A stretch of DNA of 64,000 bases, from positions 152,704 through 216,703 of the forward strand of contig NZ_VCPE01000011.1 of assembly GCF_005938105.1 (NCBI RefSeq). Direction: 5' to 3'. A program made the translations under genes and the position numbers. Position 1 is the stretch's first letter. Each line of letters opens with the position of its first letter. Below the pieces are notes generated by a model that saw only the letters and a program-made list of their open reading frames with translations, did not search any database and was not told the DNA's origin. This stretch comes from Brucella haematophila. GTDB taxonomy: Bacteria > Pseudomonadota > Alphaproteobacteria > Rhizobiales > Rhizobiaceae. This document shows, piece after piece, positions 39,715 to 49,654 of this stretch.

Positions 39715-39913
39715 AGAGCCTGTTCCAAAAGTCGCCCTGTGTGGCTGCAAATGGCAATTTGAGATTTGCTTTCGCATAATCTGAACCGAAAAGTCTGCAA
39801 CTTTTCGGGATTATGCGAGGCTTCCGGTGCTCACGTACCCAAAAGTACGCTCCGCTCCGGTACTCGAAAATCACCATTTTCGCACACACATGCCGCTTTT
39901 TGATTCAGGCTCT
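39715..39913. repeat. Palindromic mosaic repeat, long copy
   Basis: The ends are AGAGCCTG and CAGGCTCT, and the whole element is an imperfect palindrome. The 143-bp copy at 54741-54883 matches it closely. This copy carries about 56 extra bp with a nested hairpin (GCATAAT/ATTATGC at 39774-39816, inside it CGAAAAGT/ACTTTTCG). It encodes no protein and resembles the short Brucella repeat elements (Bru-RS class), a comparison from memory. Confidence 0.8.
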
Positions 39914-39958
39914 AAGTCTCGTACAGATGAGCGTAACTTGCGTTTGGAGGAGAAACGC

Positions 39959-41299
39959 TTGGCCGAACTCGCGCCCAGACAGCAGGATAGCAAGCACGAT
40001 CACCGGCAGGCCGAAAGCCTCCTTGATCATTACCTGAATATTTCCCGTCTTCTGGCGGGGCAGCTCGATTTCGATTCCATCATTCAGGCGGTGGCGGCAG
40101 AGATTGCCTGCATCTTGCCCTATGATCATCTCGACGTCTGCATCAAGATGCTCGATGGTAAGTTCCACATTGCCTATGAGGCCGGTATTGCGACCGCCTG
40201 GAGCCGCAATCCGCCAGCGCTTTTGTCTGGCAGTCCGATCCGTACCCTGTTGTCCGGCGAGGCGGGATATCTCCTGACCGACGATGCGCGCACCGATCCG
40301 CGTTTTCATTTCGAAGGGTCATTTTCCAGCCCGATCATCGAGCATGATCTCAAGGGCCGCGTCCATGTTCCGCTCAAGGCGCAGGGCGATATCATCGGCG
40401 CGCTGAGCTGTTCCAGCCTGACGCCTGCCTGCTATTCCATGCGCGACGTTGAAAACGGGCAGTCGATCGCCGATCTTCTCGCGCCTTACTTTTTCGCCAT
40501 TCGCGCCGCCGAGCAGGCCAAGCGTTCGGCCATTGTGGAAACGGAAGCCCGCGCCCGCGAGGAGGGCTTGCGGTCAGGTGCGCTGAAACTGACCGAGGCC
40601 TTGGAAACCGAACGGCACCGCATCGGCATGGATTTGCATGACCAGACGCTGGCCGATCTGACCCGGCTTGCTCGCCACGTCGAGCGGCTCACCCGCGCAC
40701 CGGATCTTTCCGGTGAACAGCTGGAGCCGCTGTTTCGCGGTCTCCAGCATTGCATGCGCGATCTGCGGCAGATCATCGAGGAGGCCAAGCCCTCCATTCT
40801 CCAGTTATTCGGTTTCGTTCAGGCCACGGAAAACCATCTCGACCGTTCGGTGCGCGACAGCGATGCGGCGATTGAATGGACGCTGGACGACCAGAGCGAC
40901 GGCATGGCCGACAGGCTGGAAGAAACGGTGGCGACATCGCTGTTTCGCATCGTTCAGGAAGCGATCAACAATGTCATCCGCCATGCTCATGCCAGCGAAT
41001 TGCGGGTGAAGCTGAGCGACCGGAGCGGGCGGCTTCTGGTGGAAGTGATCGATAATGGTATCGGGACGGACCGGCCAGCCCAGCGTCCCGGATCGGTATC
41101 GGAACTGACGCCCGAACTCACCCCCGAACTTACATTGGGTCACGGCATCGACAATATGCGCACCCGCGCGCGGCTGATTTCAGCAGGTTTCGCCATCCGA
41201 AAAAATGCGACAGGCCCGGGAACCAGTGTAACGGTGCTTTTGCCGCCGGAAATGTGCAAACCGATGAATGGAGAGAGTGATGCAGGTTCTGATCGTTGA
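39959..41299 (+). CDS. GAF-domain histidine kinase (HisKA_3 type)
   Basis: A 446-residue sensor kinase without membrane segments, so it senses a cytoplasmic signal. A GAF domain spans about residues 25-190 (LDFDSIIQAVAAEIACILPYDHLDV to ADLLAPYFFAI). A HisKA_3 dimerisation domain follows with MDLHDQTLADLTRLARHVERL (phosphorylated His 227). The ATPase has RIVQEAINNVIRHAHA (N box), EVIDNGIG and GHGIDNMRTRARLI. I start it at TTG 39959 because GGAGGAG is six bases ahead; the frame continues upstream only through the palindromic repeat. The 3' end overlaps the response regulator by 20 bp. Confidence 0.88.
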   Translation: MAELAPRQQDSKHDHRQAESLLDHYLNISRLLAGQLDFDSIIQAVAAEIACILPYDHLDVCIKMLDGKFHIAYEAGIATAWSRNPPALLSGSPIRTLLSGEAGYLLTDDARTDPRFHFEGSFSSPIIEHDLKGRVHVPLKAQGDIIGALSCSSLTPACYSMRDVENGQSIADLLAPYFFAIRAAEQAKRSAIVETEARAREEGLRSGALKLTEALETERHRIGMDLHDQTLADLTRLARHVERLTRAPDLSGEQLEPLFRGLQHCMRDLRQIIEEAKPSILQLFGFVQATENHLDRSVRDSDAAIEWTLDDQSDGMADRLEETVATSLFRIVQEAINNVIRHAHASELRVKLSDRSGRLLVEVIDNGIGTDRPAQRPGSVSELTPELTPELTLGHGIDNMRTRARLISAGFAIRKNATGPGTSVTVLLPPEMCKPMNGESDAGSDR

Positions 41300-42005
41300 G
41301 GATGACCCGCTGCATCGCACTTATCTGGGCGAGGCGGTACGGGCGGCACTGCCGGAATGCAGCGACATTTTCGAGGCTGGAAACGGGTCGGCGGGCGAGA
41401 AACTGGCGCGCCAGCATCGCGATGCGCATATCGTGATGGATTTGCAGATGAATGGTCGCAACGGCATTGAGGCGGCGCGCACGATCTGGAAGGAAAACCC
41501 CGAAACCCGCATCCTGTTCTGGTCGAACTATGCCGATGAGGCCTATGTGCGCGGCGTGTCGCGCATCGTGCCGGAAGGTGCGGCCTATGGTTATGTGCTG
41601 AAATCGGCCTCCGACGACAAGCTGCGGCTGGCGCTGCGCAGCATTTTCGTTGAGGCGCAATGCGTCGTCGATCGGGAAGTGCGCGGCTTGCAGCAGAAGA
41701 GCCTCAGCCATGCCAGCGGCTTTACCGAGAGCGAATATGAAATCCTGATTGATATCGCGCTGGGCCTGACAGACAAGATGATTGCGCGCCGTCGCAATCT
41801 GTCGCTGCGCAGCGTTCAAAATCGTCTACAGCAGCTTTATGAAAAGCTCGGCGTCTATCAGGAAAAGAGCGATACCGACGAGGGACGGTTCAATTTTCGC
41901 GCCCGCGCCGTGACCGTGGCGCTGTTGCGCAAATTGTTGAATTACAGCGCACTGGAGCGTGCGGAAGCCGAGCTCAACGAATGGCTGAGCCGACAATCCG
42001 CTTAA
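41280..42005 (+). CDS. LuxR-type response regulator
   Basis: A 241-residue regulator. The receiver domain has acidic pocket VEDDP near the N-terminus, phospho-acceptor Asp 54 in IVMDLQMNGRNGIEA and conserved Lys in YVLKSASDDKL. The C-terminal helix-turn-helix is GerE-like: FTESEYEILIDIALGLTDKMIARRRNLSLRSVQNRLQQLYEKLGV. An extra tail of about 45 residues follows. The ATG at 41280 is preceded by GGAGAG and lies inside the kinase gene. Probably controls the divergent sugar ABC operon. Confidence 0.92.
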   Translation: MQVLIVEDDPLHRTYLGEAVRAALPECSDIFEAGNGSAGEKLARQHRDAHIVMDLQMNGRNGIEAARTIWKENPETRILFWSNYADEAYVRGVSRIVPEGAAYGYVLKSASDDKLRLALRSIFVEAQCVVDREVRGLQQKSLSHASGFTESEYEILIDIALGLTDKMIARRRNLSLRSVQNRLQQLYEKLGVYQEKSDTDEGRFNFRARAVTVALLRKLLNYSALERAEAELNEWLSRQSA

Positions 42006-42011
42006 CGCGGA

Positions 42012-42941
42012 TTACGTCCAGAAGTAACGCACGAAGTGAAAGAACACCGGCGCTGAAAAGACAAGGCTGTCGGCGCGGTCGAGCATGCCGCCATGGCCCT
42101 CGATCATGTGGCCCCAATCCTTGACGCCCCGGTCGCGCTTGATTGCCGAGGCCACCAGCCCGCCAAAAAAGCCCATGACGCAAGAGACCGCCGCCAGCGC
42201 GCCCGCCTGAAGCGGTGAGAAAGGCGTCAACCAGGCAAGCCCTGCGCCGAGCAGTGATGCACTGGCCACGCCGCCGACAAAGCCTTCCCAGGTCTTGGAG
42301 GGCGAGATATTCGGCGCGATGCGATGCCTGCCGAACAGTTTGCCGAACACATATTGCAGCACGTCGCTGCCCTGCACAGTTGCGACCAGAAAAGCGATCA
42401 GCAGCAGTTTTTCACTGTCATAGCCGGGGATATCCAGCGTCATCAGCGCCGGAACATGGCTGATGCAATAGACCGACAGCATGATGCCCCATTGCTGTTC
42501 GCTGATGCGTTCGAGAAAGCGCGACGTATCGCCGGAAAGCGCGGTCAGCACTGGCATGGCGAGGAAGCAATAGACCGGGATGAAAATCGAATAGAGGCCA
42601 TACCATTCGATCCAGATCAGATAATATTGCACCGGAATGACCAGCAGAAACATGCCGAGCAGGATGCGGTGGTCGCTGCGGCGGGTCTGGGTCAGCGTCA
42701 CATATTCGCGCAGCGACGCGAAGGAGACGAGCGCGAACAAAATGATCACGCCGCCTTTGCCGAAAAGGAAGGCAATGCACATGGCCGCGACCATGATCCA
42801 CCATGCCTTGATACGGGCATTGAGGTTGACCAGTGTGGATGAAAGCGGCTTCGGCGCGCGCCAGGACAGAACGGCGGCGACGAGGCTTGCTGTTCCCAGA
42901 ACGCCCATAAGGCCGATGAATAATTGGGTTGTTTCGCTCAT
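42012..42941 (-). CDS. CDP-diglyceride synthase-like protein (CdsA family, YnbB-like)
   Basis: A 309-residue multi-spanning membrane protein that should make CDP-diacylglycerol from phosphatidate and CTP. The signature lies near the C-terminus: GSDVLQYVFGKLFGRHRIAPNISPSKTWEGFVGG and KRDRGVKDWGHMIEGHGGMLDRADSLVF. These hold the conserved SPSKTWEG, KD and GHGG-DR-DS elements. A housekeeping cdsA is expected elsewhere, so this is probably a dedicated paralogue. The ATG at 42941 overlaps the acyltransferase stop (ATGA). Last gene of a five-gene operon. Confidence 0.9.
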   Translation of the reverse strand: MSETTQLFIGLMGVLGTASLVAAVLSWRAPKPLSSTLVNLNARIKAWWIMVAAMCIAFLFGKGGVIILFALVSFASLREYVTLTQTRRSDHRILLGMFLLVIPVQYYLIWIEWYGLYSIFIPVYCFLAMPVLTALSGDTSRFLERISEQQWGIMLSVYCISHVPALMTLDIPGYDSEKLLLIAFLVATVQGSDVLQYVFGKLFGRHRIAPNISPSKTWEGFVGGVASASLLGAGLAWLTPFSPLQAGALAAVSCVMGFFGGLVASAIKRDRGVKDWGHMIEGHGGMLDRADSLVFSAPVFFHFVRYFWT

Positions 42942-43591
42942 GGGCGGTTCCCGTTTCTGGGCTGTATATCGAGAAGTTGCTGGCGGGCTCGCGTCAGAAA
43001 TTCCTTGCGGTCCTCGCCGTCGCCAAGTTGCACCGGCGCGCCGAAAACGACACGGCACAGCAAAGGCACCGGCAGGGCGGCGCCTTTCGGCAGCACCCGC
43101 GACATGTTCTCGATCCAGCAGGGGACGAACTCGACATCGGGCCGCGCCAGCGCGAGATTGTAGAGACCGGAGCGAAAACGCAGCAGCGGCTCGTCCGTCA
43201 TGTTGCGTGTGCCTTCCGGGAAGATGATCAGCGAATGGCCATCGGCCAGCGCGGTCAGCATCACTTCCATCGGGTCTTGCGTGCGCTCCACCCAGTTTCG
43301 TTCAACCAGAACCGTGCGCAGCAGCACTTCGGCCATGAATTGCCGCACGCGATTGGCGCGCCAGTAGTCTGCGCCCGCCACGGCACGGGTGCGCGCCCGT
43401 TCCTCCTGATCGAGGCAGGAGGCAAGCAGGATGAAATCGCCATGGCTGGTGTGGTTGGCATAATAGATGCGCTGGTTGCGCGATGGCCCCGTGCCGCTCC
43501 AGATCGGTCGCACGCCGGTGATGCCGCGTGACAGGATGGCGAGCAACGAGCCGAACAAAGATTGCACCTGATGACGAATGATGGTGCGCAT
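42938..43591 (-). CDS. PlsC-like glycerolipid acyltransferase
   Basis: A 217-residue 1-acylglycerol-3-phosphate acyltransferase-like protein. The catalytic motif is NHTSHGDF (HX4D) near residue 46 and the phosphate-binding motif is IIFPEGTRN near residue 126; VPCWIEN is block IV. The ATG at 43591 follows the upstream stop by one base; the longer open frame to 43795 lies within that gene and is not family-like. It would supply an acylated lipid to the CdsA-like protein encoded immediately downstream. Confidence 0.88.
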   Translation of the reverse strand: MRTIIRHQVQSLFGSLLAILSRGITGVRPIWSGTGPSRNQRIYYANHTSHGDFILLASCLDQEERARTRAVAGADYWRANRVRQFMAEVLLRTVLVERNWVERTQDPMEVMLTALADGHSLIIFPEGTRNMTDEPLLRFRSGLYNLALARPDVEFVPCWIENMSRVLPKGAALPVPLLCRVVFGAPVQLGDGEDRKEFLTRARQQLLDIQPRNGNRP

Positions 43592-43592
43592 G

Positions 43593-44018
43593 TCAGAACT
43601 CCGCGCCCGGCGGCAAAAGCGCCAGCAGGCTGAACAGGACGATAGCCAGTCCGAGAAAAAGATTGAGACGCCGGGCAATGCGGCGCGATCCCGCAATGCG
43701 GTCGCAGAGCGGTCGCACGGCCGGTTGTTTTGTGCGCAGGCCCATCCGTTCCAGAATGGAATCGACCTCCGCAAGGGCTGCCTTTTCATCGTCACCAGCG
43801 GCGATCATCCGAAACAGGGCGGCGTCGAACAGAAGATGCGCGGCAATGCCCAGCGCAATCAATGCGCTTGCCAGTAGCGCTGGCCAGATCAGCCAGAAGG
43901 CAAGGTCGTGCTGCGCGCGCACAAACGGCGCGACACCGATCAGAACAATCGCGATGCCAAGCCCGATAAAGGCGTGGCTGCGCAGGGCTTTGGCGCTATA
44001 TGCGGCTGGAGAGGTCAT
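43593..44018 (-). CDS. Small membrane protein of unknown function
   Basis: A 141-residue protein not recognised as a named family. Three hydrophobic segments are visible: FIGLGIAIVLIGVAPFV, LAFWLIWPALLASALIALGIAAHLLF, and, at the C-terminus, RLNLFLGLAIVLFSLLALL. Between the second and third is a polar loop of about 50 residues with Lys/Arg-rich parts (ERMGLRTKQPAVRPLCDRIAGSRRIARR). It overlaps the preceding phosphatase gene by 4 bp and ends one base before plsC, so it belongs to the lipid operon. It could be a scaffold or subunit for the membrane enzymes; this is a guess. Confidence 0.7.
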   Translation of the reverse strand: MTSPAAYSAKALRSHAFIGLGIAIVLIGVAPFVRAQHDLAFWLIWPALLASALIALGIAAHLLFDAALFRMIAAGDDEKAALAEVDSILERMGLRTKQPAVRPLCDRIAGSRRIARRLNLFLGLAIVLFSLLALLPPGAEF

Positions 44019-45328
44019 TCCCGCACCTCATGCGAGTGCGGGCGGAGCGGCCAGCCCTTGGCGCGGATAAGGTTTTCGGCCTCACGGGCGCTGGTCGCAT
44101 GTCCAGATTGCACCAGCCAGTCAACGGCGACCGTAGCGCTTCGCTGGAAACCAAGCGCACAGCAGATCAGGACCGGGCCTGTATGACGGGCGGCCTCGAC
44201 AGCATCGGCGGCGAGCCGAAGCTTTTCCGGCGACGGCGGCAGCAGATCCATGGCACATAAGCTCTTCCAGTCTTCCACACCGCGCGGGGCGACCATTTCG
44301 GCGGCAAGATCGATGACAGTCGTGAAGGCGTGGGCTTCGCTTTTCGAGGGAAAGCGACCGAGAAACACAGTGTCAGTCAAAGCGACGTAGGGCGGCAGTT
44401 TCCGCGTCCATAAACGGATATTGAGGCGTGCAAACAGCCGGTAGGGTGCGAGCAGCCAGCGGCTTGCGAGGGTGACTGTGCCGTCTGTCCGCTTCTGGAA
44501 AATGTCGGGACCGGCACCGAAATAGCCTGCCGCCACGATGGCGAGAGCAAGGGCTGGCCAGAACCAGAAAATCGCATAGCCCGTCAGGCTGAGACCATGG
44601 ATGCCAAGCGCGAGCAACAAAAGCGCGCCCGCCAGATAATAACTGCCGAGACGCCGCGCTTTTGCATTGTCAGTCAGATGAAACCCGGCAAGCGGCGATG
44701 GGCGGGTGCGCGGAAACAGCCAGAGCACGAAAAAGCCAAGCAATGCCCCTGCCGGAATATCGACCGCATGGTGCTGATAGGTCGTCAGCACCGACAGGCC
44801 GATCAGCAGGCACCAGATGTGCCAGACGATGCGAACGCCGCTGCTCATGATGCGGCGCATCTGGTCCCAGATGACAATCAACAGCGCGATATGCAGCGAA
44901 GGCGCCTGATTGAACGGCTTGTCGAAACCGCCCAGCACATCGAACATGAAGCCCGGCAGGCCGGAGGTCTCGGGCTTCACAAAAGTCGCGGTCAGCGGGA
45001 AGGCGACGAAGCAGATAACGGCGATGATCTGCGCTGTCAGATAGCGCTTTGCCAGACGATCCACCTGTTCGGGGCTTTCATTGACGAAAAGCGCAATGGC
45101 GTAGAACAGGTTGACCGACCAATAGGGCACGATGCTCCAGGCGATGAACGGCACGCGGCTTTCCCAGCCAAGCGCCAGATTGGGAACGTCGCTTCGCAGC
45201 GAAGCGAGCCAGTTGGCGGTGCCGTAGGTCAGGTAGAAAAAGGGACCGAGAAACAACAGCCACAGAATGGCGCGCCGGATGACCGGCCGCCGCGATGAAC
45301 CGTCGATTCCCCCCAATGCTGCTGTCAC
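44015..45328 (-). CDS. PAP2-like / dual-specificity phosphatase fusion (YnbD-like)
   Basis: A 437-residue membrane protein with two phosphatase modules. The N-terminal part has about six to eight membrane segments and PAP2 motifs NQAPSLH and TYQHHAVDIPAGALLGF, as in lipid phosphatases and inositol-phosphoceramide synthases. The C-terminal soluble part (about residues 310-437) is a cysteine phosphatase with ICCALGFQRSA, a CX5R loop with Cys 390. The same fusion is known in E. coli YnbD (uncharacterised). GTG at 45328 overlaps the upstream stop as GTGA. Substrates may be a phosphatidyl-phosphate intermediate made by the neighbouring genes. Confidence 0.82.
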   Translation of the reverse strand: MTAALGGIDGSSRRPVIRRAILWLLFLGPFFYLTYGTANWLASLRSDVPNLALGWESRVPFIAWSIVPYWSVNLFYAIALFVNESPEQVDRLAKRYLTAQIIAVICFVAFPLTATFVKPETSGLPGFMFDVLGGFDKPFNQAPSLHIALLIVIWDQMRRIMSSGVRIVWHIWCLLIGLSVLTTYQHHAVDIPAGALLGFFVLWLFPRTRPSPLAGFHLTDNAKARRLGSYYLAGALLLLALGIHGLSLTGYAIFWFWPALALAIVAAGYFGAGPDIFQKRTDGTVTLASRWLLAPYRLFARLNIRLWTRKLPPYVALTDTVFLGRFPSKSEAHAFTTVIDLAAEMVAPRGVEDWKSLCAMDLLPPSPEKLRLAADAVEAARHTGPVLICCALGFQRSATVAVDWLVQSGHATSAREAENLIRAKGWPLRPHSHEVRE

Positions 45329-47124
45329 GCTTCCGGCTCTCCGATGCGCTCGGCGATTGAAACGGTGAAAATGCCCCATTGGTCAACGCGCTGTTCCAGC
45401 TTGCGATAACCGGCCTTTTCCACCAGCTGATCCATTTCGCCCTGCGTGCGGCGGCGCATGATCCACGCCTCGCCGCCGCGATGCGACGTCAGTGCGCGGG
45501 CGATCATTTCAAGCTGCGGATGCCATGGCTGGTTGGTGTAAATCAGCAGGGAGCCGGGCTTTTGCGCACGCGCCAGTCCCGATAGCGACCGATCAATCAG
45601 CGCATTGTCGGCAAAAAGCTCATAGAGGCCCGACACGATTGCCAGATTTGGCCGTGGGTCGACGGTGGCGAGGCTTTCCGCATCGAAGGCGTCGCCTTCT
45701 TCCATATGCGCAATGGCTTCCAGCCCGCGATCGGCAATCAGCTTGCGCCCGGCAACCACATTGATCGGCGAATAATCGCGCAGATGAATGCTGTCGGGCA
45801 TGATGCCCGCACGTGCCACGGCATCAATGACATAGCGGCCATGGCCACAGGCTATATCGAGGATATTGGTGGGGCGGCCTTCGCTTTTGAGGCGGGCCAG
45901 TGCCTTGCCGATCAGCTCTTCCAGATGCACCTTGCGCTGGCGGATGCCGCGCCAGCCAATGGCGTCGAGGAACTGCCGGTCGATCAGTTTGCCGCCGGGG
46001 CCGAACCCGCGCGTCTCGTTTTCATAGACATAATCGAGCGTCGAGCCGGAATCGAAACCGGTGCGTTGCCCCACTTTCAGCCCTTCGGAGAAAAGCGCGC
46101 CAAAGGCGATGGAGGAGCGGGTCGAAGCCCAGTAAAGCCCGCGCGGCGACAATAGCGGCAACGGGCTTGAAAGCCTGTCGGCTTCGTCGCGTGTATAGCC
46201 CGCAATATGCGCTTCGGTCAGGTCGGCGCGCTGCGGCTCTTCGGCAAAGCGCTGGTCGATGAAGGTCCTGATCTTGTCGATGGCCTGCTTGCGATCCTTC
46301 TCGCCCAGCGTGTCGTGATAGAAGCCCTTCAGCACATGCCGCTCCTTGATGCGGCTACCGAGATTTTCGAAAAAGCGATGCTGAGGTGTCGGGCGCACCA
46401 CGAAATCGCTGCCGGAAATCAGAAGCTGCGTCGGCACGGTGATGGCGCGGGCATCGTCCACCACGCGCTTCGCCGCTTCATAAAGTTGCAGCAGAATATG
46501 CGAGGCGATGGGCCGGGTGATCAGCGGGTCGGTGCGGTAGGATTCGATCCGCTCGGGATCATGGGTCAAAAACTGCGGCTTGACGTAGGAATTGACGTAG
46601 AACGTGCCCTTCAGCTTCTGCCACAGCGCGATGCCTTCCTTGGCGAACGGCACATAGAGCTTGATGTCGAAGGCGGGCGAGGCCAGCACTAGCGCACGAA
46701 TATTCGGCGCATAGTCATGCACCCATGCGGCGGCAAGCACTGCGCCCACGCTCTGCGCGACAATGGCGACATCTTCAATGGCAGCGCCGGTTTCTTCGCG
46801 TATATGCGCGACAAAGCTGTCGAGATCGCGGATTGAAGCGCCGAAGGACGGTGAAAAGCCGCGCTCGCCGGGTGAACGTCCGTGGCCGCGTGCATCCCAC
46901 GCATAGAAGGCGAAATCATCGAGGCCAAGTTCATCGACCAGATGCGCAACACGTCCGCTATGTTCGTGGCCGCGATGCAGCAGGACGATCACGCCTTTCG
47001 GGCGGGCCGAGGCGGCTGGCCAGACGCGATAGAACAGCGATGTACCGTCATGGGTTGTAAACTGGGCTTCTGTTGCTTCGCGATGTGCCGTCTTGTGCGG
47101 CGGCATTTCAGCGTGCTGGCTCAT
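45325..47124 (-). CDS. Alpha/beta hydrolase fused to SAM methyltransferase (YnbC-like)
   Basis: A 599-residue cytoplasmic fusion. The N-terminal hydrolase (about 1-300) is lysophospholipase-like: VIVLLHRGHEHSGRVAHL, YAWDARGHGRSPGERG, nucleophile elbow VAQSVGAVLAA (Ser in place of the usual GxSxG centre, here AQSVG), and catalytic His in GFYHDTLGEKD. The C-terminal methyltransferase (about 400-599) has motif I ILDIACGHGRYVIDAVARA. E. coli YnbC has the same layout. The ATG at 47124 has GGGGAGGAA upstream. It is the first gene of the operon and faces the CDP-alcohol transferase gene. Confidence 0.88.
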   Translation of the reverse strand: MSQHAEMPPHKTAHREATEAQFTTHDGTSLFYRVWPAASARPKGVIVLLHRGHEHSGRVAHLVDELGLDDFAFYAWDARGHGRSPGERGFSPSFGASIRDLDSFVAHIREETGAAIEDVAIVAQSVGAVLAAAWVHDYAPNIRALVLASPAFDIKLYVPFAKEGIALWQKLKGTFYVNSYVKPQFLTHDPERIESYRTDPLITRPIASHILLQLYEAAKRVVDDARAITVPTQLLISGSDFVVRPTPQHRFFENLGSRIKERHVLKGFYHDTLGEKDRKQAIDKIRTFIDQRFAEEPQRADLTEAHIAGYTRDEADRLSSPLPLLSPRGLYWASTRSSIAFGALFSEGLKVGQRTGFDSGSTLDYVYENETRGFGPGGKLIDRQFLDAIGWRGIRQRKVHLEELIGKALARLKSEGRPTNILDIACGHGRYVIDAVARAGIMPDSIHLRDYSPINVVAGRKLIADRGLEAIAHMEEGDAFDAESLATVDPRPNLAIVSGLYELFADNALIDRSLSGLARAQKPGSLLIYTNQPWHPQLEMIARALTSHRGGEAWIMRRRTQGEMDQLVEKAGYRKLEQRVDQWGIFTVSIAERIGEPEA

Positions 47125-47143
47125 CCGGTTCCTCCCCAATTGC

Positions 47144-47246
47144 CTAGAGCGCTTTTTGATCTGATTGGATCAGATCGGCGCTCTAGTTCCCTATTTTAAC
47201 GCGCATCTTTTCCGAAAACCGTTTCACACTTTTCGGGATGCGCTCT
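47144..47246. repeat. Two-part RIME-like element
   Basis: Part one, CTAGAGCG ... CGCTCTAG (47144-47185), encloses GATCTGATT and AGATC. Part two (47201-47246) is GCGCATCTTTTCCGAAAA / TTTTCGGGATGCGC across CCGTTTCACAC. Part two matches 16899-16941. The element lies between the divergent ynbC-like and ynbA-like genes; the promoter for the latter must lie in 47247-47369. Confidence 0.75.
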
Positions 47247-47369
47247 AAGCTGCCCGCACTCAATTAACCCCAATTAGTATTGAGTGCAGTAGAATGTTTG
47301 AATAAACGAGCAAATGCGAACCGCAAATAGCTGTTTGTCCGATATTGTCCATTTCCCAAGAGATTCTCG

Positions 47370-47978
47370 ATGTCCGTCTATCAGCTTAAGTCACAATTCC
47401 AGAATTTACTGAGGCCTGTTGTCGTGCGACTTGCCCGTGCCGGAGTAACGGCCAATCAAGTCACGATAGGCGCGGCGTTGGGGTCGGTCATACTTGGCGC
47501 GCTGCTTTTCTGGGGCGGCAGCGCGGTCTGGTTCGCGCTGGTGCCGGTCTGGCTTTTCCTGCGCATGGCGCTCAATGCGGTAGACGGTATGCTGGCGCGG
47601 GAGCACAACCAGAAGAGTACACTCGGCGCTTATCTGAACGAGGTTGGCGATGTCGTTTCCGATGCCGCACTCTATGCGCCATTCGTCCTTGTCGCGCCTT
47701 TCTCCGGTGCGTGGATGTTCGCCATCGTCCTGCTTGCGGTTCTGACCGAATTCGTCGGCGTCACAGGTGCTTCACTGGGCGCGAGCCGCCGCTATGACGG
47801 GCCGATGGGCAAGAGTGATCGCGCGGTGGTCTTCGGCGTTCTTGGCGCGTGGATTGCCATTGACGGCGGATTGCCGGGCTGGGCCTTTTGGGTTCAACCG
47901 TTGCTGTGCCTGCTTCTGGCGGTGACGGTCGTCAAGCGCGTTCGCGGCGGTCTTGGCGAAGTGGCTTCCAAGGTCTAA
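47370..47978 (+). CDS. CDP-alcohol phosphatidyltransferase family protein (YnbA-like)
   Basis: A 202-residue inner-membrane protein with about six segments. Members join CDP-diacylglycerol to an alcohol to make a phospholipid. The active-site motif is recognisable but altered: NAVDGMLAR, then eight residues, GAYLNEVGDVVSD. Against the standard DxxDGxxAR...GxxxDxxxD, the first and third Asp are Asn (N69, N90), while D72 and D94 remain and D98 is extra. E. coli YnbA, as I recall it, has the same Asn pattern. It is divergent from the ynbC-like operon and its stop overlaps the stop of the convergent Fe3+-type permease. Confidence 0.88.
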   Translation: MSVYQLKSQFQNLLRPVVVRLARAGVTANQVTIGAALGSVILGALLFWGGSAVWFALVPVWLFLRMALNAVDGMLAREHNQKSTLGAYLNEVGDVVSDAALYAPFVLVAPFSGAWMFAIVLLAVLTEFVGVTGASLGASRRYDGPMGKSDRAVVFGVLGAWIAIDGGLPGWAFWVQPLLCLLLAVTVVKRVRGGLGEVASKV

Positions 47979-49654
47979 GCGCCCGTGCGCTCAAAGCGCT
48001 TGAGCACACCCAGCAACACCAGCGGCACGAATGTCGTAATCACGATGGCGATGAAGGCCATCGCCATGCCAAGCCCGACCGAACCCTGTTCGAACTGACG
48101 CCAGATGAAGATGGATATGGTCTGCATGCCGACTGGCGCGACCAGCACCGAGGCGACCAACTCGCGCGTCGCGACCGCAAACACCAGCAGCATGGCGGTG
48201 ATCAGGCTTGGCGCGATCAGCGGCAGCATGATGCGGCGGAAAGCCGTGAAGCTGTTAGCACCGCAAACACGGGCGGCGGCTTCCAGATTATCGCCGATCT
48301 GGTGAAAAGCGGCGGTTGCATAGCGGATCGGCTGCGGTAGCAGAATGCAGCAATAGGCCAGCAGCAGGATGAGCGGCGTATTATAGGGCGAGATCGGCAG
48401 CGACGGCTGGTTCCACGCCAGAATGAGGCCTACCGCCACGACGACGCCGGGCAGGGCATTGGGCAAAACGGTCAGCACATCGAGCCAGAAGCGGCCACGA
48501 AACCGCATTTTCACCACGGCATAGGCGGCGACAGCACCGAGGAACCCGGTCAACAGCGCGCTGCCGAGACCGAGCGACAGGCTGTTGAACAAGGCGCGCA
48601 TCCCACCAGCACTGTTTTCGGCGATGGCTGCGAAGTTGTCGAAGCCGAGATTGGCGGGCGTCAGTCCGCCGGATACGGTTTTGGACAGTGCGGTGGCGAG
48701 GATCGCCAGCAGCGGAACACCGGTGGCCGCAAAAGCGACCAGCGCAAACAGCGCCACCACTGGCGCGGTCATTGTGCCAAGCGGGCGCTTGTCTTTCGAT
48801 TGCGGCTTGCCGCCAGTGGTCACATAGGAACGGCGGGTCAAAATCCAGCGCTGGATCAGAAAGGCCGCCAGCGACAGGCAGACCAGCGTGAGCGAAAAGA
48901 CCGAAGCCCCGGCCAGATCAATCGGCCAGTCGGAAATGCGCAAGTCGATTTCCGTCACCAGCACCTCAAAACCCGAGCGGCGTCCAAGCGCTGCGGGGGT
49001 GCCATATTCCTCAATCGCCGCGGCGAAGACGAGAAGCAGGCTTGCTGCCAGTCCCGGTGTGGCGAGCGGCAGGGTGATGCGGAAGAAGGACCGCCATGGC
49101 GATGCGCCGAAGACGCGGCCCACATCGGAATAGCGTGCGCCGACCGCTTCGATGGTGCGTGATACGGCGAAATAGACCAGCGGGAAGGTGTTGAGCGCCA
49201 TCACGAAGGTCATGCCCGCGAGCGAGAACAGAAACGACGCCAGATGAAATCCGGTCAGCTGTTCGAGATAACCACGCGGCTGCAAGGTCATGATCCAGCC
49301 AAGCGTCGCGATATAAGGCGGGATCATGAAGGGAACGAGCATCAGCACGTCCCAGACGACCGCAAAGGGCACCTTGTAAAGCGCGCGAAACACCGCGAGC
49401 GGCACGGCGATCAGTGCTGACAGCACGACCACGCAAAGGCCGAGCAACACCGTATTGGCGCTCATGCGCAAAAGCTTCGGATCACCGAACAAGGCCGGAA
49501 GATGCAGGAAGGGCTCGGCCAGCGAGCCCTGTCCCAGTTTTGGAAAGACAGCCTGAAGCACGATGAAGACAAAGGGGACGGCCACAACCAGCGCCAGTCC
49601 GACGCCAGCGACAAGTCCGAGCGGGTTTGCACCAGCGCTGCTATTTGCCTTCAT
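47975..49654 (-). CDS. Fe3+-type ABC transporter permease (FbpB-like, fused)
   Basis: A 559-residue permease made of two six-helix halves, each with an EAA-type coupling loop: EAVGARYSDVGRVFGASPWRSFFRITLPLATPG (first) and NLEAAARVCGANSFTAFRRIMLPLIAPS (second). Such fused permeases serve ferric iron, 2-aminoethylphosphonate or thiamine-type systems. It follows the binding-protein gene by 11 bp. The substrate stays open. Confidence 0.88.
   Translation of the reverse strand: MKANSSAGANPLGLVAGVGLALVVAVPFVFIVLQAVFPKLGQGSLAEPFLHLPALFGDPKLLRMSANTVLLGLCVVVLSALIAVPLAVFRALYKVPFAVVWDVLMLVPFMIPPYIATLGWIMTLQPRGYLEQLTGFHLASFLFSLAGMTFVMALNTFPLVYFAVSRTIEAVGARYSDVGRVFGASPWRSFFRITLPLATPGLAASLLLVFAAAIEEYGTPAALGRRSGFEVLVTEIDLRISDWPIDLAGASVFSLTLVCLSLAAFLIQRWILTRRSYVTTGGKPQSKDKRPLGTMTAPVVALFALVAFAATGVPLLAILATALSKTVSGGLTPANLGFDNFAAIAENSAGGMRALFNSLSLGLGSALLTGFLGAVAAYAVVKMRFRGRFWLDVLTVLPNALPGVVVAVGLILAWNQPSLPISPYNTPLILLLAYCCILLPQPIRYATAAFHQIGDNLEAAARVCGANSFTAFRRIMLPLIAPSLITAMLLVFAVATRELVASVLVAPVGMQTISIFIWRQFEQGSVGLGMAMAFIAIVITTFVPLVLLGVLKRFERTGA

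What the first reader, a model, noticed from the sequence alone, without database searches (positions are those of the whole stretch)
42012..47978. Six-gene phospholipid-type cluster resembling the uncharacterised ynbABCD genes
Seen: five minus-strand genes with 4-bp overlaps or 1-bp gaps (hydrolase-methyltransferase fusion, PAP2/cysteine-phosphatase fusion, small membrane protein, PlsC-like acyltransferase, CdsA-like cytidylyltransferase) and a divergent CDP-alcohol phosphatidyltransferase. Established: CdsA makes CDP-diacylglycerol, CDP-alcohol transferases use it, and some pathways (PGP, PIP) need a phosphatase. E. coli YnbA-D show the same four core types. Inference: the set makes and edits one unusual phospholipid: acylation, CDP activation, head-group transfer, dephosphorylation, then methylation or deacylation. 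The acyltransferase and the 141-residue membrane protein extend the E. coli set. I know of no assigned product.
Basis: partly seen in the sequence, partly recalled or inferred. Interest (0 to 1): 0.78.

Follow-up and report, generated by a model that had tools for sequence, protein, structure and literature searches.

The report
Arc1-like phospholipid gene cluster
Six neighbouring genes for building and editing a membrane lipid appear to match a widespread bacterial gene set that, in Pseudomonas, helps cells survive toxins from rival bacteria; the lipid they make has not been identified.

Summary
Five overlapping minus-strand genes plus a divergent CDP-alcohol transferase form a conserved unit. 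Of 398 genomes sampled from the phylum, 27 (own included) carry the diagnostic hydrolase-methyltransferase family; all 26 others have the transferase beside it and 22 of 26 have all six families. The acyltransferase and small membrane protein are the usual state; E. coli ynbABCD looks like a reduced form.

The function is not blank in print. Gene number and order fit arc1A-F (PA2541-PA2536) of P. aeruginosa, an inducible cluster protecting against type VI secretion attack, and arc1A against lipase effectors (PMC8926400, PMC12663445). The passages I read report no chemistry or product. Orthology to PAO1 rests on published annotation of three genes and on gene order, not on a sequence test.

New here: the transferase has two of four signature aspartates replaced by asparagine in 106 of 106 copies (8 of 8 cluster copies against 0 of 19 readable paralogues), and the cytidylyltransferase has glycine for a metal-site aspartate in 88 of 89. 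My bold reading is a distinct transferase class that makes a dedicated, possibly new phospholipid.

The parts
47370..47978 (+). CDP-alcohol phosphatidyltransferase (YnbA/Arc1A type), 202 aa, signature N69-x2-D72-G-x2-A-R-x8-G-x3-N90-E91-x2-D94
45325..47124 (-). monoglyceride-lipase-like hydrolase fused to a Methyltransf_20 methyltransferase (YnbC type), 599 aa
44015..45328 (-). PAP2_3 membrane domain fused to a cysteine (dual-specificity type) phosphatase (YnbD type), 437 aa, GTG start
   Evidence: PF14378 over cut-off, DSPc below cut-off; PSxH in 103 of 103, C(A/V)LGxxRS in 98 of 103 frames over 400 bits
43593..44018 (-). small membrane protein, 141 aa, three hydrophobic stretches; no named family
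   Evidence: profile match in 97 of 107 loci, each within 2 kb of a PAP2-phosphatase; no Pfam or NCBIfam match in 12 of 12 members scanned; hydropathy
42938..43591 (-). PlsC-like lysophospholipid acyltransferase, 217 aa
   Evidence: PF01553 65.5 bits; FPEGTR in 86 of 86, NHxSxxD in 85 of 86 frames over 200 bits
42012..42941 (-). CdsA-like cytidylyltransferase (YnbB/Arc1F type), 309 aa, Gly in place of TmCdsA Asp219
   Evidence: PF01148 235 bits; Gly in 88 of 89 frames over 250 bits; clade apart from housekeeping CdsA
47125..47369 (.). 245-bp divergent intergenic region, presumed to hold the control elements
   Evidence: the one sigma-70-like site found in 41900-48100 does not lie here

Best explanation
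This is an arc1/ynb-type phospholipid branch. The PlsC-like enzyme makes or restores phosphatidate by acylating lysophosphatidate; the CdsA paralogue activates it to CDP-diacylglycerol; the CDP-alcohol transferase, a distinct class with an Asn/Asn metal site, moves the phosphatidyl group to a phosphorylated acceptor that is not inositol phosphate; the cysteine-phosphatase domain removes the phosphate; the hydrolase-methyltransferase, the near-constant partner of the transferase, methylates the product and trims or removes acyl chains. The product or the flux helps the membrane when rival bacteria attack it, phospholipase toxins included. Shown here: gene set, conservation, motifs, folds of two proteins. 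Shown elsewhere for the P. aeruginosa set: the defence phenotype. Inferred: orthology to the PAO1 genes, every reaction, their order, the acceptor and the product.
For: Six families together in 22 of 26 other sampled genomes and 60 of 80 named loci. Arc1 is PA2541-36: six genes, five lipid-related, four like phosphatidylglycerol synthesis (PMC8926400); arc1A is needed for full resistance to lipase effectors (PMC12663445). PA2536, PA2537 and PA2540 are annotated as phosphatidate cytidylyltransferase, acyltransferase and putative phospholipase, which fits the order found here. The own genome has one other PF01148 gene and three other CDP-alcohol transferases, so the set looks dedicated. The transferase is nearest to archaetidylinositol- and phosphatidylinositol-phosphate synthases by NCBIfam score (77 and 58 bits, below cut-offs) and by fold, yet inositol-1-phosphate synthase is in only 2 of 27 cluster genomes and the inositol-phosphate Arg94 of the M. 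tuberculosis enzyme (PMC6506517) is replaced in 106 of 106.
Against: No product is known and no reaction was tested. The own genome has no CsrA match, so Gac/Rsm control as in P. aeruginosa cannot apply. [quoted passage not shown] in PMC12663445 arc1A is called auxiliary to arc3A. E. coli YnbB has been assigned to MPIase synthesis (PMC6362211, PMC7018664). The acyltransferase and cytidylyltransferase are absent from the locus in 12 Rhizobium-type loci and some others, and one sampled locus (L059) has only the transferase and hydrolase-methyltransferase. The retained phosphate-binding motif of the transferase is my reading: phmmer's alignment places GKSDR one residue off ERPER.
Confidence: 0.6

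Rival explanations
1. Clean-up rather than synthesis: the set destroys and recycles lysophospholipids made by phospholipase toxins. The monoglyceride-lipase-like domain strips the last acyl chain, the PlsC-like enzyme re-acylates lysophosphatidate, and the other enzymes return it to ordinary phosphatidylglycerol-type lipid.
For: The hydrolase domain is clearly of monoglyceride-lipase type with its motifs kept; arc1A defends against lipase effectors; the PlsC-like partner is in 23 of 26 and 63 of 80 loci.
Against: Does not explain the methyltransferase domain, present with the hydrolase in 26 of 26 sampled loci, nor the constant Asn/Asn transferase if the product were ordinary phosphatidylglycerol; the Arc1 defect was not tied to one toxin in PMC8926400.
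Confidence: 0.27
2. Reserve supply of ordinary CDP-diacylglycerol and phosphatidylglycerol, or of the MPIase glycolipid precursor, under stress.
For: E. coli YnbB raises MPIase when over-produced and makes CDP-diacylglycerol in vitro (PMC6362211, PMC7018664).
Against: ynbB loss alone changed neither growth nor MPIase and YnbB could not replace CdsA; the other genes have no role in that reading; the own genome has other CDP-alcohol transferases.
Confidence: 0.1
3. A phosphatidylinositol-type pathway: phosphatidylinositol phosphate made by the transferase and dephosphorylated by the cysteine phosphatase.
For: PIP and archaetidylinositol phosphate synthases are the nearest NCBIfam models, and PIP synthases the nearest folds.
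Against: Inositol-1-phosphate synthase in 2 of 27 cluster genomes, and the E. coli control does not ring; Arg94 of the inositol enzymes replaced in 106 of 106; both NCBIfam scores are far below cut-off.
Confidence: 0.03

Closest known systems
arc1A-F (PA2541-PA2536), antagonism resistance cluster 1 of Pseudomonas aeruginosa (PMC8926400, PMC12663445)
   Same: Six genes, five lipid-related; printed annotations of PA2536, PA2537 and PA2540 fit the order here; 11 of 11 sampled f44 genomes (presumed Pseudomonadaceae, unnamed) have the six families in this order.
   Different: Here the transferase gene is divergent from the other five; no CsrA in this genome, so control must differ; defence not tested here; no sequence comparison with PAO1.
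Escherichia coli K-12 ynbABCD
   Same: Four shared families, 34 to 55% identity to the window proteins; Asn/Asn signature; YnbB in the same CdsA-paralogue clade.
   Different: No acyltransferase or detected small membrane protein; YnbB sits second; YnbB is the one of 89 copies counted that keeps Asp and the PGHGG proline.
Mycobacterium tuberculosis phosphatidylinositol phosphate synthase PgsA1 (6h53, 6h59; PMC6506517)
   Different: Asp68 and Asp89 are Asn, Ala90 is Glu, Arg94 is Val, Ile, Ala, Met or Leu.
Thermotoga maritima CdsA (4q2e, 4q2g)
   Same: Similarity over window residues 37-301; most of the CDS motif.
   Different: The Asp219 position is Gly, as PMC7018664 says of eukaryotic CDS; PGHGG is EGHGG.
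Monoglyceride lipases (3hju, 7ozm)
   Different: Fused to a Methyltransf_20 domain; substrate unknown.

Membership tests
arc1 cluster | six adjacent genes, five of them lipid-related | tested here: met
   window against the description of PA2536-41 in PMC8926400
arc1 cluster | identity and order of the six genes | tested here: inconclusive
   PA2536, PA2537, PA2540 named in print and fit; what PA2538, PA2539 and PA2541 encode is recalled
arc1 cluster | sequence orthology to the PAO1 proteins | not tested
arc1 cluster | Gac/Rsm control | tested here: not met
   no CsrA match in the own genome; 17 of 27 cluster genomes have one. This is the P. aeruginosa control circuit, not a property of the enzymes
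arc1 cluster | defence against interbacterial attack | not testable with these tools
   phenotype reported for P. aeruginosa
CDP-alcohol phosphotransferase, class I | overall fold and family profile | tested here: met
CDP-alcohol phosphotransferase, class I | four signature aspartates DxxDGxxAR...GxxxDxxxD | tested here: not met
   first and third are Asn in 106 of 106 copies; of 20 other transferases in 8 cluster genomes 18 are Asp/Asp by pattern, one by eye, one not read
phosphatidylinositol phosphate synthase | Arg94 that binds inositol phosphate | tested here: not met
   Arg in 0 of 106; role from PMC6506517
CDP-diacylglycerol synthase CdsA | CDS motif KDx5PGHGGx2DRxD | tested here: inconclusive
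   kept but for the proline, replaced in 88 of 89; motif as given in PMC7018664
CDP-diacylglycerol synthase CdsA | Asp219/Asp249 metal dyad | tested here: not met
   Asp219 position is Gly in 88 of 89; eukaryotic CDS has Gly there too (PMC7018664)
monoglyceride lipase | alpha/beta hydrolase fold and catalytic triad motifs | tested here: met
   substrate not tested

The most novel reading that the evidence does not exclude
The Arc1A/YnbA proteins are a new class of CDP-alcohol transferase whose di-metal site has lost two carboxylates (one of them the ligand that bridges the metals in the M. tuberculosis enzyme) and gained a glutamate beside it; with its partners it makes a so far undescribed, methylated phospholipid that shields Gram-negative membranes from phospholipase toxins, and E. 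coli ynbABCD is a pared-down version of the same pathway.
Probability: 0.4. Interest if true: 0.82.

Novelty: new member of a known kind. Interest (0 to 1): 0.56.

Why it matters
It joins three lines that the papers I saw do not connect: the orphan E. coli operon ynbABCD, the CdsA paralogue YnbB filed under MPIase synthesis, and the P. aeruginosa arc1 defence cluster, whose chemistry I found unreported. It gives a laboratory model (E. coli K-12, four genes) and precise residues with which to ask what lipid, if any, protects bacteria against phospholipase toxins, and it points to a CDP-alcohol transferase with an unusual metal site.

Tried and rejected
Neighbouring GAF histidine kinase and LuxR-type regulator (39827-42005) as the local switch: found by tblastn beside the cluster in 2 of 107 loci, L061 and L062, the nearest relatives, so probably accidental. 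Further conserved flanking genes: the 14 largest groups printed by a clustering of flanking frames held cluster or shadow frames, an ABC-transporter ATPase and neighbours bound to one clade; I did not read them exhaustively. Phosphatidylinositol pathway: rejected as told. PADLOC: one weak hit, mad2, to the methyltransferase part, E 1.7e-4, read as general methyltransferase similarity. Colicin plasmid context: 2 of 3 E. coli plasmid copies lie near colicin genes and one shows none within the 12 kb seen on each side; all three have only a short or disrupted frame in the phosphatase slot, so I draw no conclusion. Foldseek itself was not run; only the VIA second look was obtained.

P. aeruginosa was not among them. 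Loci were picked by the hydrolase-methyltransferase, so its constancy is partly by choice.
Full report
What is there. The six genes are as described. On the minus strand lie a 599-residue hydrolase-methyltransferase (45325-47124), a 437-residue PAP2 plus cysteine-phosphatase protein (44015-45328, GTG start), a 141-residue membrane protein (43593-44018), a PlsC-like acyltransferase (42938-43591) and a CdsA-like cytidylyltransferase (42012-42941), joined by three 4-bp overlaps and one 1-bp gap; on the plus strand, 245 bp away, lies a 202-residue CDP-alcohol transferase. Pfam assigns five of the six; the small protein matches nothing in Pfam or NCBIfam, nor do 12 of 12 aligned members. The nearest named relatives are Ochrobactrum and Brucella-group species, the best being Ochrobactrum sp. 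Q0168, 98% over the hydrolase-methyltransferase.

Conservation. In 398 genomes drawn evenly from the phylum, 27 (13 of 213 genera, own genome included) have PF12147. I fetched the 26 other loci. By profile with set thresholds the counts of 26 are: transferase 26, hydrolase-methyltransferase 26, PAP2-phosphatase 24, small protein 24, acyltransferase 23, cytidylyltransferase 23, all six 22. Leaving the small protein aside, 60 of 107 loci (26 + 80 + E. coli K-12) have transferase, hydrolase-methyltransferase, phosphatase, acyltransferase, cytidylyltransferase in this order on one strand, and 13 have the same with the transferase divergent, as in the window; the other 34 differ. Names in the list include alpha-, beta- and gammaproteobacteria and two Acidobacteria MAGs. 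In the own genus 25 of 35 genomes, own included, have PF12147.

Modules. The transferase and the hydrolase-methyltransferase are the near-constant pair, though loci were picked by the latter. Phosphatase and small protein are missing together in L059, L060, L088 and L138; against that, the small protein alone was not detected in L093, L128, E. coli and the contig-cut L092, L117 and L119. Acyltransferase and cytidylyltransferase are missing together in L053, L054 and ten named Rhizobium loci, among others. That the small protein is a partner of the phosphatase is inference.

Match to a known system. Ting et al. 2022 (PMC8926400; abstract, sections 5 and 6 and passages seen) named PA2541-36 of P. 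aeruginosa arc1A-F: six genes, five predicted lipid genes, four like phosphatidylglycerol synthesis, very low basal expression, strong Gac/Rsm induction, needed to survive Burkholderia thailandensis type VI attack, no effect on heat, peroxide, salt or detergent survival; the class of toxin was left open. Tejada-Arranz et al. 2025 (PMC12663445; abstract and passages) found arc1A needed for full resistance to lipase effectors of V. cholerae and A. baylyi, auxiliary to arc3A. PMC4066749 (one passage) cites PA2541 as having a known RsmA binding site. Other papers give annotations, seen as passages: PA2536 probable phosphatidate cytidylyltransferase (PMC8190622), PA2537 probable acyltransferase, whose Tn5 mutant had a colony phenotype and low fitness in mouse airways (PMC2246019), PA2540 putative phospholipase (PMC5541441). 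What PA2538, PA2539 and PA2541 encode I give from recall. Number and order fit. I could not compare sequences with PAO1. The eLife text held no word beginning with ynb. My searches for ynb, arc1 and PF12147 terms listed no paper whose listing showed the link or a product; only 25 of 342 papers were listed, and the library lacks most subscription journals.

E. coli literature. YnbB makes CDP-diacylglycerol in vitro, raises the glycolipid MPIase when over-produced, could not replace CdsA, and its loss alone is silent (PMC6362211, PMC7018664; passages). Disruption of ynbC in HMS174(DE3) went with polyphosphate build-up and diffuse LtrA; the Keio deletion did not show it, and polar effects were possible (PMC2435150; passages). 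A tree of 17 cytidylyltransferases sets YnbB, the plasmid copies and the cluster copies apart from two housekeeping CdsA (98/99), with YnbB and the two enteric plasmid copies beside the other twelve (94/93 and 88/92, below the program's star). DNA of the K-12 operon is matched in 4579 of 5426 complete E. coli genomes, over 80% of its length in 4239.

Mechanism. Best reading: acylation of lysophosphatidate, CDP activation, transfer to a phosphorylated acceptor, dephosphorylation, then methylation and acyl trimming by the fusion enzyme, giving a dedicated lipid that helps the membrane withstand attack. Only gene set, motifs, folds and conservation are shown here; the defence phenotype is from P. 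aeruginosa; the reactions are inference. The strongest rival is lysophospholipid clean-up, which fits the lipase phenotype but not the methyltransferase nor the altered transferase. Control must differ from P. aeruginosa, since the own genome gave no CsrA match.

Verdict. A real, conserved cluster, a new member of a known kind with unknown chemistry. What is added: the link of ynbABCD to arc1, the six-gene form as the common state, the unnamed sixth family, and the Asn/Asn transferase class.

Noticed in passing
L144, L147, L148 (E. coli plasmids NZ_CP045714, NZ_CP166875, NZ_CP027341): Plasmid copies of transferase, cytidylyltransferase, acyltransferase and hydrolase-methyltransferase with only a short or disrupted frame in the phosphatase slot; two of the three lie near colicin and colicin-immunity genes. 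In 3 of 5426 E. coli genomes does a place cover 80% or more of this stretch.
   Followed up: partly
L145 7841-13427 (Citrobacter sp. TSA-1 plasmid) and L146 (19-kb Burkholderia ambifaria plasmid): Six-gene sets on plasmids; in Citrobacter the order is that of ynbABCD with the acyltransferase inserted and a 136-aa frame in the small-protein slot, whose profile match is weak (E 0.16).
   Followed up: partly
window 39827-42005: GAF histidine kinase and LuxR-type response regulator pair, convergent with the cluster and ending 6 bp from it; found beside the cluster in 2 of 107 loci.
   Followed up: yes
window 47158-47176: Near-palindrome GATCTGATTGGATCAGATC in the divergent intergenic region, flanked by AGAGCGC and GCGCTCT; one place in the window.
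   Followed up: partly
L057 9208-11358: A 717-aa WG-repeat protein gene between the hydrolase-methyltransferase and the phosphatase.
   Followed up: no
own genus: The 10 of 35 genomes without PF12147 are 3.3 to 4.6 Mb; the 25 with it are 4.4 to 5.9 Mb, but for one incomplete genome of 3.1 Mb. The set may be lost in smaller genomes.
   Followed up: no
   Followed up: no
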